A DNA stretch of 40,896 nucleotides, from NCBI RefSeq assembly GCF_003013815.1, contig NZ_PRLH01000056.1, positions 1 through 40,896 on the forward strand. The letters run 5' to 3'. The translations under genes and the position numbers were made by a program. The notes under the pieces were generated by a model. The model saw only the letters and a list, made by a program, of their open reading frames with translations. It searched no databases and was not told the origin of the DNA. Below, piece by piece: positions 1 through 35,939 of the stretch; the first letter of the stretch is position 1, and each line of letters opens with the position of its first letter. This DNA comes from Cyanothece sp. BG0011. Lineage in GTDB: Bacteria > Cyanobacteriota > Cyanobacteriia > Cyanobacteriales > Microcystaceae.

Positions 1-98
1 GCCAACAAATAAACCGACCAGCGGGAGACAACTTACACGAGTTGACATTGTGTGTAGATTAATTTAAACTAGGGAAAGTATTAATAGTGGTCGAACTA

Positions 99-1373
99 AT
101 GCTTACATTAACTTACGAATTTAAGCTAATCCCAAATAAGCAACAAATTGAGGTAATTGAACATACTTTAAATGTTTGTCGCTCCGTCTGGAATTATGCT
201 TTAAGAGATCGTAAGGACTGGCTAAGTTCTAGAAAATCCCCTGTTAATTCTTGCTCATTAATTCAGGAATATATTATTTCTCCTGACGTACCTTACCCTA
301 ATTATCACAATCAAGCTAAAGCATTAACAAAGGCCAAGAAAACTAATGACATACTCAAATCAGTAAACGCTCAAGTTTTACAACAAGTCTTGAGGACTTT
401 AGATAGAGCTTTTGCCGATATGCAGTCCAAAAAGTTAGGCTTTCCGCGCTTTAAAAATAGGGATAGAATGCGGTCTTATGTATATCCTCAAATGCTAAAA
501 GATTGTATTAAAGGTAACGAAATTAAATTACCACACCTAGGATGGGTAAAGTTTAGAAAGTCTAGAGAAATACCTGATGGGTTTGAGTTAAAACAAGCTC
601 GCATTGTAAGGAGAGCTAATGGTTACTTCATGATGCTTTCTTTACAGTTAGATGTTAATATTCCTGACGTTTCTTTTCATGGACATCCTTTAGGTATTGA
701 CTTAGGTTTAGATAAATTCTTGGCTACTTCCGATGGTGAACTTGTGGATAGACCTCGATTCTTAAATCGACTACATCGTAAGCTGAAATTGCTACAGCGT
801 AGATTAAGAAATAAGAAAAAAGGCTCTAATAATAGACACAAGTTAAACAAAAAGATAGCTAGATTACATCAACGAATTTCTGATACTCGTAAAGACTGGC
901 ATTTCAAGTTAGCTCATCGTCTTTGTGACCAATCACAATCAATATTTATTGAAGATATTGATTTTAGGTCATGGGCTAAAGGAATGTTATCTAAACATTG
1001 TCTTGATGCTGGTTTTAGACAATTCATAACCATTCTTAAATGGGTAGCATGGAAAAGAGATGTTTTTGTTAATGAAGTTGACAAGAATTTTACATCTCAA
1101 ATTTGCCCTAATTGTGGGTTTCATACTGGTAAGAAAACCCTTGATGTTAGAGAGCATAATTGTCCTGAATGTGGGTATAAAACCCACCGAGACGTGGCAG
1201 CAGCGCAAGTTATCAGAAATCGTGGTGTAGAAGAATATGCGCTAGGGCATAGCGTATCTGAAAATGCCTGTGGAGATGATGGGACGGGGGCTTTGCCTAG
1301 TTACCAATCTGTGAAGCAGGAAATCTTAAGCGCGAGTTTAAGAATCCCTCGTTATAGCGACGTAGGAGCTTAA
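99..1373 (+). CDS. tnpB: TnpB RNA-guided nuclease (OrfB), intact
   Basis: TnpB is the RuvC-fold nuclease of IS200/IS605 elements. It binds an RNA made from the element's right end and cuts matching DNA, which helps the element persist. The protein has about 424 residues. The N-terminal OrfB helix-turn-helix region starts MLTLTYEFKLIP. The RuvC acidic triad is complete: Asp in GIDLG (about 201), Glu in FIEDID (about 285) and Asp in HRDVAAA (about 365). The zinc ribbon CPNC...CPEC (about 336-358) is intact, so the nuclease is probably active. ATG 99 matches the usual family start. A GTG at 87 in the same frame, nearer to AGGGA at 71, is an alternative. The last codons overlap the predicted guide-RNA scaffold, and the stop codon lies in its hairpin. 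Confidence 0.92.
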   Translation: MLTLTYEFKLIPNKQQIEVIEHTLNVCRSVWNYALRDRKDWLSSRKSPVNSCSLIQEYIISPDVPYPNYHNQAKALTKAKKTNDILKSVNAQVLQQVLRTLDRAFADMQSKKLGFPRFKNRDRMRSYVYPQMLKDCIKGNEIKLPHLGWVKFRKSREIPDGFELKQARIVRRANGYFMMLSLQLDVNIPDVSFHGHPLGIDLGLDKFLATSDGELVDRPRFLNRLHRKLKLLQRRLRNKKKGSNNRHKLNKKIARLHQRISDTRKDWHFKLAHRLCDQSQSIFIEDIDFRSWAKGMLSKHCLDAGFRQFITILKWVAWKRDVFVNEVDKNFTSQICPNCGFHTGKKTLDVREHNCPECGYKTHRDVAAAQVIRNRGVEEYALGHSVSENACGDDGTGALPSYQSVKQEILSASLRIPRYSDVGA

Positions 1374-6383: not shown

Positions 6384-6417
6384 AAAAATCTCTTGGTAAA
6401 AAACAGGAGATTTTTTT
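6384..6417 (+). terminator. Intrinsic terminator of the pentapeptide-repeat gene
   Basis: AAAAATCTC (6384-6392) pairs with GAGATTTTT, and the stem is followed by a run of seven T. It lies about 30 bases after the stop codon. Confidence 0.85.
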
Positions 6418-6524
6418 ATCCCAATAAAAGAAAAACCAGAAATACAAAAATTTTGACCATGCTAGTCACTCAATCGATACAAATTATACGAGATCTGCTT
6501 TAGATAGTATAGTATCAAGTCTCG

Positions 6525-6578
6525 AAGCAGGGAGAAGGGAGCAGGGAGAAGGGAGCAGGGAGCAGGGAGCAGGGAGAA
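6525..6578. repeat. Tandem GGGAGCA/GGGAGAA minisatellite
   Basis: There are about seven 7-base units alternating GGGAGCA and GGGAGAA. The same unit appears in reverse orientation at 39033-39058. It lies just upstream of the ISAs1 element. Confidence 0.85.
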
Positions 6579-6636
6579 AAAACGTTACTCTACTAAAATA
6601 AGCGGATTTGGTATTAGGATGATTCCTAAATATAAT

Positions 6637-6646
6637 GGTCGTTATT
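6637..6646. repeat. Target-site duplication, left copy (GGTCGTTATT)
   Basis: This 10-bp sequence abuts the left inverted repeat of the ISAs1-family element and recurs exactly at 8651-8660. ISAs1-family elements generate duplications of this size. Confidence 0.93.
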
Positions 6647-6756
6647 CAGGGCGAACGCATCTTAAATATTTTGATATGAGGCCTTTAATTCTAATTAGCG
6701 ATCGCGGCCAGAAAAGAAATTTTGGCAACCCCCTTGACCATCATCATGACTGAACC

Positions 6757-7590
6757 CTATTTATGCCTAAATTTGGCGGACTCATTTCCGAATTTAATTA
6801 GGGGAAGAGTTAAGCTATTGTAAATCGGAGAAATTGGTAGCAAGTAATAAGGAATTGGATCAATGATTAAGTATCGGGTTTCACCACTATTAAGAGCTTG
6901 GTCAATCAAAATGTTTTTCTGATTTAAACTAAAAATTTTAATGCCTTTGCGCCACAATCTTTGGAATAAATAGGCAGCTTGAATTTTTAAAACTTGACGC
7001 TGCTTATCTCTGTCTAGATATCGATACAAGCTAAATTGAGATAAAGTCCGGATTTCTTCAAGACTAGGAATCTTAAAAACTTCACAAAATTGAGGACTAA
7101 ATCCCAACTTGGTATTTCCCAAAGTTCTGTCACCCTTGACCCTTTGCATAAATAAAACTTGCTTGAACAAGGAACTTGGAGAGCTAATTTGGACATAGAG
7201 ATAGACTGGACAAATCTGGAGGAGAGCTTTTTGGTCATTATTTAGTTGCTTTTTAAATTTCTGGGTAAGTTGAAGACTTCGGTAGAATTGTTTTCCCAAG
7301 TCTTCTGCTAAAGGTTTCATTTGCGAACATTTAAGTGCCAAATGAGAATTGGGAAAAATTCCTAGCTTAGAGTCCTCTTTGCCCAAAATATAAATACCGC
7401 TCTTAATTTTGTCAGGAGAAGGGTTAATATTATATTCAGTTTTATTACTCTCCAGGTTGATAATGAAAGATTGTAACCTGTTAATAAATTCTGTTAGAGT
7501 TCCATACTCAGAGCTTAATCTGTCATAAATACTGTGAGCAAAATGAAGAGATATTTGACCTATGATTAGTTTTTTGGTAGTGATTCCCAT
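6757..7590 (-). CDS. Passenger gene in the ISAs1 element, unknown (possible degenerate kinase fold)
   Basis: The protein has 277 residues, no signal peptide and no membrane helix. I do not recognise the family. The C-terminal part contains LFQRLWRKGIKIFSLNQKNILIDQ followed about 10 residues later by RYLIIDPIPYY. The spacing recalls the catalytic loop and DFG region of aminoglycoside- or RIO-type kinases (HxDxxxxN, then IDF). Here the catalytic Asp would be Asn and DFG would be DPI, so if it is a kinase fold it is probably not active as such. This is inference only. It is transcribed away from the transposase from a 78-bp shared spacer, has no strong Shine-Dalgarno sequence and ends about 94 bp inside the left end. 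Confidence 0.6.
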   Translation of the reverse strand: MGITTKKLIIGQISLHFAHSIYDRLSSEYGTLTEFINRLQSFIINLESNKTEYNINPSPDKIKSGIYILGKEDSKLGIFPNSHLALKCSQMKPLAEDLGKQFYRSLQLTQKFKKQLNNDQKALLQICPVYLYVQISSPSSLFKQVLFMQRVKGDRTLGNTKLGFSPQFCEVFKIPSLEEIRTLSQFSLYRYLDRDKQRQVLKIQAAYLFQRLWRKGIKIFSLNQKNILIDQALNSGETRYLIIDPIPYYLLPISPIYNSLTLPLIKFGNESAKFRHK

Positions 7591-7668
7591 CTAGTTAAAA
7601 CTTTACTTTATAATGAATTTAACTCTGATGGTGGTGTATCTTGATACAAAATTAGTTAGTAAGATGTA

Positions 7669-8430
7669 ATGAAATTAAAACCGAAAATAACGCTTATTGA
7701 CCATTTTGAGCAATTGAGTGACCCAAGAGTTGATAGAACTAAAGACCATAAGCTGATTGATATTATTGTTATCGCACTGTGTGCCATGATTTGTGGGGCT
7801 GATAACTTTGTGGCCATGGAAACTTACGGAAACTCAAAATACGAATGGTTGAAGCAGTTTTTGGAATTAGAGAGCGGAATCCCCTCTCACGACACTTTTG
7901 CACGGGTGTTCGCTCGAATTGACCCAGATGAATTTGAAAAATGTTTTCGCGATTGGGTTAGTTCAGTCGCGGAATTGATGCCAGGAGAAGTGATCAATAT
8001 TGATGGAAAAACAGTAAAGCATTCAGTCAATAAAGCAGAGGGAAAAAAAGCGATTCACTTGGTAAATGCTTGGGCATCTGAACAAAGATTGGTTCTTGCA
8101 CAACAAAAAGTCCACGAACGGACGAATGAAATTACGGCTATTCCCCATCTCATCAAAGTTTTGGAACTTAATGGATGTTTAGTTACCATCGACGCAATGG
8201 GGACTCAAACGGATATTATTGAAAATAGTCTCCATTGGGTTTTGGATGTGTCTTTTTCAGAAGATGATTGTCCTGTATATAAAGATAATGCCCCTGAGAA
8301 TTTAGCTATGGTTAGACAGATATCTCTTAATCTTCTCTCAACTGAAAAAACTGCTAAAATAGGGGTAAAAAATAAACGACTCAAAGCAGCTTGGGATGAT
8401 AAATATCTGGCTAAAGTTTTGGGTATTTAA
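7669..8430 (+). pseudogene. ISAs1-family DDE transposase with internal deletion
   Basis: The protein has 253 residues against about 370-380 for the family. The N-terminal DUF4277-like region (LSDPRVDRTKDHKLIDIIVIALCAMICGA) and the first part of the DDE domain are normal, with Asp112 in NIDGKT and Asp175 in TIDAMG. After MGTQTDI the frame jumps directly to IENSLHWVLDVSFSEDD, which normally lies about 120 residues later and carries the catalytic Glu (Glu185). The missing segment normally contains the LKGNQ and RRHW regions. The deletion is in frame near 8212-8222, so a product could be made but is unlikely to transpose. A terminator lies at 8451-8517. Confidence 0.92.
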
Positions 8431-8450
8431 TATTAGCGATTGCCACTATT

Positions 8451-8517
8451 AAAATAGCCCAATAGCTTATGACAATGATCTCGGTGTGAGGTCAACAATC
8501 ACATGGCTATTTTTTTC
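8451..8517 (+). terminator. Terminator of the ISAs1 transposase
   Basis: AAAATAGCC (8451-8459) pairs with GGCTATTTT, and the stem runs into seven or more T. The 45-base loop is long, but the pairing and U-run are clear. It lies within the element, before the right end. Confidence 0.6.
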
Positions 8518-8650
8518 CTAAATTGTCTTATAAACCAGATTTTTTCCTTTGGTAAAAGTTTTTGGAAGTGTTTTTCAAATTACCTGGTAATTGGAAACCT
8601 TCAACACATTATAACTCACTTTTGCTAACATTTTAGATGCGTTTGCCCTG

Positions 8651-8660
8651 GGTCGTTATT
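8651..8660. repeat. Target-site duplication, right copy (GGTCGTTATT)
   Basis: Identical to 6637-6646, directly after the right inverted repeat. Confidence 0.93.
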
Positions 8661-8668
8661 TTGTAGTT

Positions 8669-10180
8669 CTATAAGTTTCTTAAATGTTTTCCGACTCGTA
8701 AAGCGTTGGCAATAATGGTTAGGGTGGGATTAACACTCGCACTTGAGGGAAAAAAGCTGCCATCAACCACATACAAATTCTCAACATCATGGGTGCGACA
8801 ATTGAGATCAAGTACAGAAGTCGTCGGATCTTCTCCAAAACAACAGGTTCCGCAATGGTTAGCCGTAACTTGAACTGGGATTTCGCTACGGGGATAAATA
8901 CTACTTCTTTTAAACAGAGAATGTTCCAGGGTTTTTTCGACTTGTTTTAACGTGCCGATCCAACGATGAACTAAGCGATCATGAGATTCAATGTTGTTAG
9001 GAGTATAATCGATGTACAATTTTTCTCCTTTAAGTCTGACTCGATTATGATGATTGGGTAAGGTTTCAGTTTGTACCCACCAACCAATAGAACGCTTGGC
9101 TAACTGTTCTAGGGCAATATCGGGGACGAGTTTGGCTAAAACCGATAAAATAGGCGGAGATTCAGCAAAAATAAGCTCTTGGAGTAATCCCCCTGTATTT
9201 TGGATGTGACCCATGGGATAGGGAAACTCGCCCTCTCCCCAGTAAAAATCATTGAGATAAACGGTTCTCGGAAATTTGCCAGAATTAGGGGTGGTACTGA
9301 GTTGTACCATAGCTGTCATCAGGGGTTTCATCAGATTGCGTCCCACCTGATCAGAACTGTTGGCAAGTCCATTCGGATGTTTTTCATTAGCAGAACGCAA
9401 AAGTAGCGCAGCGGAATTAATTGCACCACAAGCTAAGACGACGACATCAGAAGAAAACAGATATTTTTGTCCCTTTATCTCTGTTTCTACTGATTTTACT
9501 TGAGTTCCTGAAGCGTTCGTGTGTAAACAAACCACTTTAGCATCGGTTTTTAGGGTAACGTTAGGAAACCCTAGCACTAGACTAATGCCAAACACTTCTG
9601 CGTCTCCTGTGGGATCATCGGTTTGACGGGTTAAGGATAAAGGTAGAGTAGCAGGGTGTAATCCAAGGGTGGCGATCGCATCGACAATTTCTTGAATCGG
9701 GGGTTCATGATTGACCGCAGGATAGGGATAATCCATACTACGGAGAGGATCAGTCGGATCTTGACCTGATTTTCCGTGAACTTTGTAGAGTTGTTCAGCT
9801 TCGGTGTAATAGGGTTCAAAATCTTGGTATTTTAGGGGCCATTCTGGGGAAATCCCGTCTTGGTGTTGGACGGCTTCAAAGTCTTTTTCCCGCATCCTTA
9901 AGAGGGCTGCGCCGTAGATTTTAGTATTGCCACCCACAGCATAATTAGTTTGAGGAGAAAAGGGTTCCCCTGCATTGTCGTACCATTTTTCGGATGGATG
10001 ATACCATTCTCTTTTAAAAACATCTACGTTGCTTCTATTTTGGTCTTCTAGGGGCATAAAATTACCCCGTTCTAAAATCAATATTTTTTTTCCAGTTGAG
10101 GCTAATTTATAGGCTAAGGTTCCGCCACCTGCTCCAGTTCCAATGATAATAATATCATAAGTTTGATCATCAATAATCAT
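8669..10180 (-). CDS. GMC-family FAD-dependent oxidoreductase
   Basis: The protein has 503 residues. An N-terminal FAD-binding Rossmann motif (IIIGTGAGGG, residues 12-19, then ILERG about 20 residues on) is followed by the GMC signature region YAVGGNTKIYGAAL. The C-terminal GMC domain reads HCGTCCFGEDPTTSVLDLNCRTHDVENLYVVDGSFFPSSASVNPTLTI, where the conserved active-site His/Asn positions lie. The family oxidises alcohol groups of sugars, sterols or small alcohols; the substrate here is unknown. It has no export signal. It starts 54 bp after ctaE on the same strand with no obvious terminator between, so it may be co-transcribed with the terminal oxidase operon. The ISAs1 insertion begins 9 bp downstream of the stop. 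Confidence 0.9.
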   Translation of the reverse strand: MIIDDQTYDIIIIGTGAGGGTLAYKLASTGKKILILERGNFMPLEDQNRSNVDVFKREWYHPSEKWYDNAGEPFSPQTNYAVGGNTKIYGAALLRMREKDFEAVQHQDGISPEWPLKYQDFEPYYTEAEQLYKVHGKSGQDPTDPLRSMDYPYPAVNHEPPIQEIVDAIATLGLHPATLPLSLTRQTDDPTGDAEVFGISLVLGFPNVTLKTDAKVVCLHTNASGTQVKSVETEIKGQKYLFSSDVVVLACGAINSAALLLRSANEKHPNGLANSSDQVGRNLMKPLMTAMVQLSTTPNSGKFPRTVYLNDFYWGEGEFPYPMGHIQNTGGLLQELIFAESPPILSVLAKLVPDIALEQLAKRSIGWWVQTETLPNHHNRVRLKGEKLYIDYTPNNIESHDRLVHRWIGTLKQVEKTLEHSLFKRSSIYPRSEIPVQVTANHCGTCCFGEDPTTSVLDLNCRTHDVENLYVVDGSFFPSSASVNPTLTIIANALRVGKHLRNL

Positions 10181-34412: not shown

Positions 34413-35939
34413 CTATTCATTGATTTGACAAAAATGAACAATTTTGTTGACCACCTCTTCAATAGTTAAGTCATCGGTGTTTAATTCCATCGCATCATTA
34501 GCCTTACGAAGAGGGGCTAAAGTACGATGACTATCTCGATAATCTCTTTGTTCAATCTCCCGTTCTAGTTGTTGAAGATCAAGATTATCTTGTCCTTGAG
34601 CTTGAAAATCCAGTAACCGTCGTCTTGCTCGTTCTTGGACTGAGGCGGTTAAGAAAATTTTAACCTCGGCATCCGGGAACACATTAGTACCAATGTCTCG
34701 CCCTTCGGCCACAACACCACCCAATTTCCCTAATTCCTGTTGATAGTTGACCAATTTTTGACGAACCGCAGGATAAGCAGAAATGGGGGAGACCAAGGCA
34801 GTAACTTGAGGGGTGCGAATGGCATTCGTCACATTTTCTCCATTAATGATCACTTGTGGCGGTTGCTCATCGGAGGAGGGGATAAATTTTAAATCCGCTT
34901 GGGAGACTAATTCTGCGATCGCACTTTCATCCTCCACGGAGATCCCTGAGTGTAACACTAACCAGGCCATCCCTCGGTACATGGCCCCGGTGTCTAAATA
35001 GGTAAAATTTAAAGCTTTAGCCACTCGACGGGTAACAGTGGATTTTCCGGCACCGGCTGGGCCATCAATAGCAATAATGGGTTTTCGGACTCGTAAAATC
35101 ATGTTATCAATGAGTCGAGTGGAACCGACATAAGCGGCGATCGCCAATAACCCGGCTTCTTCAATCGTTTCTAGAGGTTGTAGGGTTTGAGGATGGACAC
35201 ATTCAACATATTGAATGGTGATACCAGAATAAGCGCTGATGGTATCTTTGACGCAACCTACTAAGACATTAGTTTGTCTTTCTCCAGCCAGAAAAGCTTG
35301 TTTCGCCGCTTGTAACCCTTGATATAGGGCGATCGCTTCTTCTTTTTGGGCTTCTGAAAGATATTGATTGCGAGAACTATAAGCCAGTCCCGAAGGCTCT
35401 CGAACAATGGGACACCCTTTAATCCTAACGGGTAAGTTTAAATCCTGAACCAACTGACGAATAATCGCCAACTGCTGCGCGTCTTTTTCCCCAAAGTAAG
35501 CCACATCGGGGCTAACAATATTAAGCAGTTTCGTGACGATGGTGGCCACCCCTTGAAAATGGCCCGGACGAAACGGCCCGCACAAAGACGAGATCATGCT
35601 CTTAGGAGGAATGACTTGAGTGGGTTGGTCAAAGGGACTATTAACCCCCATTTCTTCGGGGGTTGGGGCAAAAATTGCCGTCACCCCTAATTCCTGACAC
35701 CGTTGAGCGTCTGTTTCGAGTTGGCGGGGGTATTGGTCTAAATCTTCGTGAGGGGCAAATTGTAGGGGGTTAACAAAAATGCTCACCACCACCACATCTA
35801 CCTCAGCCATAGCACGACGAATGAGACTCAGATGACCTTGATGTAAGGCTCCCATGGTAGGGACTAAGCCAATGGTTTGCTTGTCCCCCCTAGAAGCTAA
35901 ATAGGTACGTAACCCGGCCACAGTTTTCAACAGACGCAT
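34413..35939 (-). CDS. panC/cmk: Bifunctional pantothenate synthetase/cytidylate kinase
   Basis: This natural fusion is known from cyanobacteria. Residues 1 to about 283 are PanC, which joins pantoate to beta-alanine with ATP: PTMGALHQGHLSLIRRA, FGEKDAQQLAIIRQLV and SSRNQYLS. From about 287 to 508 is cytidylate kinase, which phosphorylates CMP/dCMP: the P-loop IDGPAGAGKST (291-301), YLDTGAMYRG and GRDIGTNVFPDA. All catalytic motifs in both halves are intact. It lies 14 bp downstream of rlpA on the same strand. Confidence 0.97.
   Translation of the reverse strand: MRLLKTVAGLRTYLASRGDKQTIGLVPTMGALHQGHLSLIRRAMAEVDVVVVSIFVNPLQFAPHEDLDQYPRQLETDAQRCQELGVTAIFAPTPEEMGVNSPFDQPTQVIPPKSMISSLCGPFRPGHFQGVATIVTKLLNIVSPDVAYFGEKDAQQLAIIRQLVQDLNLPVRIKGCPIVREPSGLAYSSRNQYLSEAQKEEAIALYQGLQAAKQAFLAGERQTNVLVGCVKDTISAYSGITIQYVECVHPQTLQPLETIEEAGLLAIAAYVGSTRLIDNMILRVRKPIIAIDGPAGAGKSTVTRRVAKALNFTYLDTGAMYRGMAWLVLHSGISVEDESAIAELVSQADLKFIPSSDEQPPQVIINGENVTNAIRTPQVTALVSPISAYPAVRQKLVNYQQELGKLGGVVAEGRDIGTNVFPDAEVKIFLTASVQERARRRLLDFQAQGQDNLDLQQLEREIEQRDYRDSHRTLAPLRKANDAMELNTDDLTIEEVVNKIVHFCQINE

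What the first reader, a model, noticed from the sequence alone, without database searches (positions are those of the whole stretch)
6637..8660. ISAs1-family transposon with a cargo gene and a perfect 10-bp target duplication
The ends CAGGGCGAACGCATCT and AGATGCGTTTGCCCTG are inverse repeats (15/16), flanked by exact GGTCGTTATT copies. This proves a unit of 2004 bp. ISAs1 elements normally hold only a transposase. Here about 1 kb between the left end and the transposase carries a divergent 277-codon gene, so the element may be a cargo-bearing derivative.
Basis: partly seen in the sequence, partly recalled or inferred. Interest (0 to 1): 0.72.

Follow-up and report, generated by a model that had tools for sequence, protein, structure and literature searches.

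The report
Jumping DNA carrying a borrowed gene
A small bacterial jumping element in a cyanobacterium holds, beside its now damaged jumping gene, an intact gene that looks borrowed from another cyanobacterial group, a probable single example of how such simple elements pick up ordinary genes.

Summary
Confirmed: a 2004-bp unit (6647-8650) with inverted ends (15/16; 21/24 extended) and exact 10-bp GGTCGTTATT duplications. It sits in a tnpB remnant; four tnpB copies in the genus read GGTCGTTATT once at the matching place. The ISAs1 transposase lacks 122 codons in frame, and no other was found in this genome, so this copy is probably not autonomous. Four resolved ISAs1 elements of relatives are 1.20-1.50 kb with 85-166 bp before the transposase; here it is 1022 bp. 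The extra DNA is a gene of a conserved, unnamed cyanobacterial family, predicted kinase-like with a changed catalytic loop. Nearest kin are Hyella, Pleurocapsa and Xenococcus (73-75%); grouping with homologues of its own family is rejected. It was not found in eight other genomes of the genus, nor beside ISAs1 in 25 other places. Best reading: one capture of a foreign-lineage gene by an ISAs1 element. That gene and element move together is inferred, not shown.

The parts
6411..6646 (+). remnant of a tnpB (OrfB_IS605) element, the insertion target; its start (MLVTQSIQI...) near 6460 and a ...IPKYNGRY fragment at 6614-6646, other DNA between
   Evidence: intact copy in L035 is OrfB_IS605, E 6.1e-23
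6637..6646 (.). left target-site duplication GGTCGTTATT
   Evidence: one copy at the matching place in tnpB of L035, L037, L038, L039
6647..6670 (+). left terminal inverted repeat
6671..6756 (.). spacer between left end and passenger stop; no likeness seen to ISAs1 subterminal DNA of the genus; 6710-6752 resembles DNA in three places of other genomes
6757..7590 (-). passenger gene, 277 codons, kinase-like protein family
7591..7668 (.). intergenic: about 25 bp weakly resembling DNA upstream of the Hyella-group gene, then about 50 bp of unknown origin before the transposase
7669..8430 (+). ISAs1 transposase, 253 codons, in-frame loss of 122 codons at about 8217
8431..8626 (+). right untranslated part, alike to other ISAs1 copies in the genus
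8627..8650 (-). right terminal inverted repeat
8651..8660 (.). right target-site duplication; the next four bases TTGT also fit tnpB, then DNA like that downstream of the GMC gene

Best explanation
An ISAs1-family insertion sequence enlarged by one captured host gene. The gene encodes a kinase-like protein of a conserved cyanobacterial family and comes from the Hyella/Pleurocapsa/Xenococcus lineage or a close unsampled one. The enlarged unit transposed as a whole into a tnpB remnant and made a 10-bp duplication (duplication and ends shown; joint movement of the gene inferred). Before or after that, an in-frame deletion removed the middle of the transposase, so this copy probably moves only if an ISAs1 transposase is supplied in trans (inferred). 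The passenger gene kept its reading frame and family motifs.
For: Ends and exact duplication; tnpB copies with one GGTCGTTATT; ISAs1 profile E 6.7e-80; four resolved ISAs1 elements of relatives are 1203-1497 bp with 85-166 bp left parts and 10-bp duplications; passenger family, own genome counted, in 1 of 9 genomes of the genus, 5 of 50 of the family, 16 of 291 of the order, 2 of 386 of the phylum sample; grouping with four Hyella-group rows 100/99, grouping with own-family rows rejected p-AU 0.004; Hyella also holds a related ISAs1 with a left end sharing 18 of the first 19 bp, 77% DNA in the transposase; pairwise dN/dS 0.16-0.19 against the Hyella group.
Against: Only one copy was found, so movement of gene plus element together is not shown. 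No passenger homologue examined elsewhere lies by ISAs1. The transposase is nearer to a same-genus copy (88% DNA) than to Hyella's (77%), so element and gene need not have come together. The gene differs by 19-22% in DNA from every Hyella-group row. 8 of 105 positions invariant in six relatives are changed in the window protein, and its branch is longer than theirs (0.24 against 0.05-0.12), a hint of relaxed constraint. Its codon score (0.007) is below those of the 12 other window genes listed (0.037-0.171), which helped train the score, and near the transposase's (0.004).
Confidence: 0.7

Rival explanations
1. An ordinary ISAs1 copy landed here first; the gene entered between its left end and the transposase afterwards by illegitimate recombination or another element. 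The duplication then dates the IS, not the passenger.
For: The duplication cannot tell the order; the transposase is nearest to a same-genus ISAs1 while the gene is of the Hyella group.
Against: No ISAs1 left-part remnant is recognisable on either side of the gene, though these parts diverge fast; the repeat search of 6500-8800 showed no second pair of repeats bracketing the gene.
Confidence: 0.2
2. Two ISAs1 copies once flanked the gene (composite transposon) and the left copy eroded to its outer end.
For: The left end differs from most same-genus ends beyond 16 bp and reads ATCTTAA as in the Hyella copy.
Against: No left transposase fragment remains; the left-end likeness is a few bases and one same-genus end (L079) also reads ATCTTAA. 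It is a route to the best explanation rather than a separate outcome.
Confidence: 0.08
3. Chance enclosure or assembly artefact.
For: None found; the genome is a 227-contig assembly.
Against: Exact 10-bp duplication plus 15/16 ends, none in 20 simulated windows; the element lies inside a 40,896-bp contig; duplication length fits ISAs1 (PMC6305408 passage).
Confidence: 0.02

Closest known systems
ISAs1-family insertion sequences (e.g. ISArsp11, 1306 bp, IR CAGGGC..., 10-bp DR, no passenger; PMC6305408 Table 3 passage; ISAs1 of 1200-1500 bp in Ralstonia, PMC7371123 table passage)
   Same: Transposase family, ends beginning CAGGGC, 10-bp duplication.
   Different: 2004 bp, passenger gene in an enlarged left part, internally deleted transposase.
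Passenger-bearing insertion sequences of other families (ISArsp12 of IS481, ISPst2 of ISL3, ISArsp9/14/16 of ISNCY; PMC6305408 section 27 read)
   Same: Single IS unit with extra genes between its ends.
   Different: Another IS family; ISPst2 recurs in several copies and strains, this one is seen once.
Kinase-fold proteins: Pfam YrbL-PhoP_reg and Kdo/WaaP (nearest, sub-threshold matches)
   Same: Predicted kinase fold; Lys87, Asn226 and Asp244 are invariant where kinase motifs are expected (motif positions recalled).
   Different: Matches are weak (4 of 17 and 1 of 17 members, best E 0.012 and 0.007); the catalytic-loop Asp appears replaced by Ser221 in all 17 members aligned.

Membership tests
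ISAs1 family IS | ISAs1 transposase | tested here: met
   NF033564 E 6.7e-80, 268.6 bits against cut-off 70; profile positions 1-153 and 275-314 only
ISAs1 family IS | ends starting CAGGG and a duplication of about 8-10 bp (8-10 recalled; 10 bp in PMC6305408) | tested here: met
   15/16 ends, exact 10 bp; four relatives also 10 bp
ISAs1 family IS | complete DDE transposase | tested here: not met
   122 codons missing between the second putative Asp and the Glu; the three DDE letters remain by alignment (DDE assignment recalled)
ISAs1 family IS | only a transposase gene, about 1.2-1.5 kb | tested here: not met
   2004 bp with a 277-codon passenger
passenger-bearing IS (tIS, name recalled) | non-transposition gene between the ends of one IS | tested here: met
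passenger-bearing IS (tIS, name recalled) | gene moves with the element (several loci or hosts) | tested here: not met
   one copy in own genome, none found in 8 other genus genomes, none by ISAs1 in 25 places; sampling limited
protein kinase-like fold | kinase fold | tested here: inconclusive
   model pLDDT 78, pTM 0.78; all 15 PDB matches at E<=0.001 are kinases but TM only 0.15-0.37; profile search of PDB sequences found none (best ClpB, E 0.8)
protein kinase-like fold | catalytic loop Asp | tested here: not met
   SLNQKNI[LM] in place of HxDxxxxN in 17 of 17 members (motif recalled)
ribbon-helix-helix N-terminus | RHH domain match | tested here: inconclusive
   5 of 17 members match RelB/DinJ at best E 0.0097, among unrelated families of like E; no RHH match in Pfam for the 10 N-terminal pieces given of 17 in A3

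The most novel reading that the evidence does not exclude
A minimal one-gene IS acts as a gene-transfer vehicle between cyanobacterial families: it took a whole chromosomal kinase-like gene out of the Hyella/Xenococcus group, delivered it to a genus that lacks it, and then became fixed by transposase loss while the passenger stays under selection, i.e. an IS domesticated for its passenger.
Probability: 0.25. Interest if true: 0.6.

Novelty: new variant of a known kind. Interest (0 to 1): 0.4.

Why it matters
It is a compact case of a simple IS holding an ordinary host gene of another family's lineage, with identifiable donor relatives, target and ends. If the gene moved with the element, even small ISs without resistance genes contribute to transfer of chromosomal genes. 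It also points to a kinase-like protein family in cyanobacteria that the libraries searched here do not name.

Tried and rejected
No family for the single 277-residue protein in Pfam, NCBIfam or PADLOC, and one weak PHROG match (E 0.21); phmmer on PDB gave one match at E 0.3; the single-sequence model was useless (pLDDT 31). The first genome-contig scan, with the single protein, confirmed no relative among 60 pattern matches; the family alignment gave 19 loci. An orthologous empty site was sought: in G291 the pentapeptide and GMC genes lie about 9 kb apart, and G296 has a match to the first but none to the GMC gene, so I have no clean empty locus. The stretch 6710-6752 was suspected of being a genome repeat; not supported, since its 24-bp core within 2 mismatches occurs once in the own genome and once in the eight others (a second copy in G295 with an extra base, L094, escapes that pattern). 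A ribbon-helix-helix N-terminus was suspected and not supported. Consensus promoters in 6600-8700 are no more than chance (5 against a mean of 6.6). A first idea that the transposase deletion arose at a 7-bp repeat (overlap, written in my note) was dropped: at most 3-4 bases are shared at the junction. The isolated end-like 21 bp at G000:C14:22301 was not pursued beyond.

Papers: searches for ISAs1 with passenger gene or cargo, with cyanobacteria, for tIS and for captured host genes in ISs listed no ISAs1 element with a passenger that I recognised; this rests on listings, on passages of four papers and on one section read. A search for YrbL and kinase fold found no paper.

Full report
Observation. 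The window holds a 2004-bp unit at 6647-8650. The ends match 15/16 (21/24 when extended) and the flanking GGTCGTTATT copies are exact. The same combination did not arise in 20 simulated windows. Inside lie a 277-codon ORF on the minus strand (6757-7590) and a 253-codon ISAs1 transposase ORF on the plus strand (7669-8430). The longer ORF exceeds the longest open frame of 2000 simulated stretches (maximum 170). Its codon score is higher in its own frame (0.007) than in the five others (-0.08 to -0.13), but lower than that of the 12 other window genes listed (0.037-0.171), and near the transposase's (0.004).

Target. The left flank resembles repeated DNA in the genus. In four such loci (L035, L037, L038, L039) the match lies in one and the same reading frame (...IPKYNGRYFV...), and each reads GGTCGTTATTTTGT at that place (the 3-kb stretch of L038 holds a second GGTCGTTATT elsewhere that I did not look at). 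The full-length frame of L035 is OrfB_IS605; the other three were not scanned. The window has a matching tnpB start near 6460, a later piece up to the duplication, and four more fitting bases after the right duplication. So the element landed in a tnpB remnant. These are paralogous, not orthologous, empty sites; the locus is arranged otherwise in the relatives looked at.

Transposase. It matches the ISAs1 profile at positions 1-153 and 275-314 only. Alignment with an intact 375-residue copy of the same genus (L059, G291) and two others shows an in-frame loss of 122 residues between the second putative catalytic Asp and the Glu (the catalytic letters are assigned from recalled knowledge of DDE enzymes). 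The missing part includes much of the catalytic domain, so activity is unlikely. In the own genome both searches for ISAs1 transposases returned only the two pieces of this copy, and the element was found once; one isolated 21-bp end-like sequence lies at G000:C14:22301.

Normal structure. Of 19 ISAs1 loci examined (a few are the same place twice), four were resolved with ends and duplications: 1237, 1497, 1341 and 1203 bp, left parts of 94, 166, 156 and 85 bp, all with 10-bp duplications; fifteen did not resolve (cut by contig or fetched ends, decayed, or another reason). Two of the unresolved elements have one recognisable end: left part 201 bp in the L059 copy and 66 bp in the Hyella copy L116. 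The window element, resolved by the same script, has 1022 bp before the transposase. Published ISAs1 sizes agree with the normal form: ISArsp11, 1306 bp, ends CAGGGC..., 10-bp duplication, no passenger (PMC6305408, passages), and 1200-1500 bp in Ralstonia (PMC7371123, table passage).

Passenger. Own genome counted, relatives occur in 16 of 291 genomes of the order, 2 of 386 of an even phylum sample, 5 of 50 of the family and 1 of 9 of the genus, the window itself (three of these genomes are 79-89% complete). A genome-contig scan with the family alignment gave 19 named loci: Hyella patelloides and Pleurocapsa 75%, Xenococcaceae and Xenococcus 73%, Hydrococcus 53-55%, Nostoc and Scytonema 52-54%, others 47-52%. 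In 15 neighbourhoods clustered the gene has varied neighbours; upstream proteins printed for 12 of them look like ordinary chromosomal genes to my eye (four loci share a P-type-ATPase-like cluster, three a lipid-kinase-like one); no family search was run on them. In 34 loci (15 unnamed, 19 named; 25 distinct places) no ISAs1 transposase was found at E 0.01; four sequences within 2 mismatches of the ends are GCGATCGC-type or near it and unpaired. Several loci reach a contig end within 1 kb of the gene, so an end could be missed there.

Origin. In a tree of 19 rows (window plus 18 homologues; the decayed G091 copy and the short second G272 match were left out) the window protein groups with the four Hyella-group rows at 100/99. 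Holding it with the four own-family (Hydrococcus) rows lowers the likelihood by 36.5, p-AU 0.004. Its branch is longer (0.24) than those of the four (0.05-0.12). Pairwise dN/dS against these is 0.16-0.19, like that among them (0.16-0.21); dS is high (0.69-0.94) and much of this history may predate capture. Against continued constraint, 8 of 105 positions invariant in six relatives are changed in the window. DNA likeness ends close to the gene at both sides, with about 25 bp of weak upstream likeness. The transposase is nearer to the same-genus L059 (88% over 555 bp) than to Hyella's (77% over 550 bp), so where the capture happened is open.

Protein. Members share LALKCS, SLNQKNI[LM] and IIDP-type blocks. 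Four of 17 members match Pfam YrbL-PhoP_reg and one Kdo/WaaP, all weakly. A model from the 17-sequence alignment has pLDDT 78 and pTM 0.78. All 15 PDB matches with E<=0.001 are protein kinases (ULK1/2, IRE1, TBK1), but TM-scores are low, at most 0.37; in a library of viral models the 6 matches with E<=0.001 are kinases by name. I read it as a kinase-like protein whose catalytic-loop Asp is replaced by Ser in the family, so perhaps a pseudokinase. The profile search of PDB sequences found no kinase (best E 0.8, ClpB), and NCBIfam gave only weak scattered matches, which is against a close link to a known kinase family.

Conclusion. The most likely account is an ISAs1 element enlarged by a captured host gene and inserted as one unit, now probably immobile. 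That the gene travelled with the element is inferred from enclosure, from not finding it in the rest of the genus, and from its foreign kinship. A second site would settle it. Passenger-bearing ISs are known in other families (PMC6305408 section 27, read); I recognised no ISAs1 case in the listings. Hence a new variant of a known kind, moderate interest.

Noticed in passing
window 6710-6752: 43-bp stretch between left end and passenger resembles DNA in three places of other genomes (L093, L094, L095) with TTGAC and ATCATCATGACTG in common; possibly a shared promoter or operator.
   Followed up: partly
window 6526-6580: GGGAGCAGGGAGAA tandem repeat, many similar stretches across the genus.
   Followed up: no
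window 87-1373: A separate TnpB gene of 428 codons (OrfB_IS605, Cas12f1-like TNB, HTH_OrfB_IS605).
   Followed up: no
L061 4866-5423 (G291:C164): 558-bp stretch with two inverted ISAs1 ends and the last 49 codons of the transposase, a short internally deleted derivative; its printed 12-bp flanks show no duplication by eye.
   Followed up: partly
L150 (G279:C1): One same-family genome holds at least 31 ISAs1 transposases at full profile length (31 of 157 candidates were scored); the one copy resolved has 16-bp ends identical to those of the window element.
   Followed up: no
L146: Contig titled Candidatus Gracilibacteria SU_1_2 has the same length as contig G307:C110, whose genome is placed in one genus with Hydrococcus records, and carries the cyanobacterial gene; the record name is probably wrong.
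   Followed up: no
window 34413-35939: One 508-codon ORF looks like a fused pantothenate synthetase and cytidylate kinase (read by eye; recalled as known in cyanobacteria).
   Followed up: no
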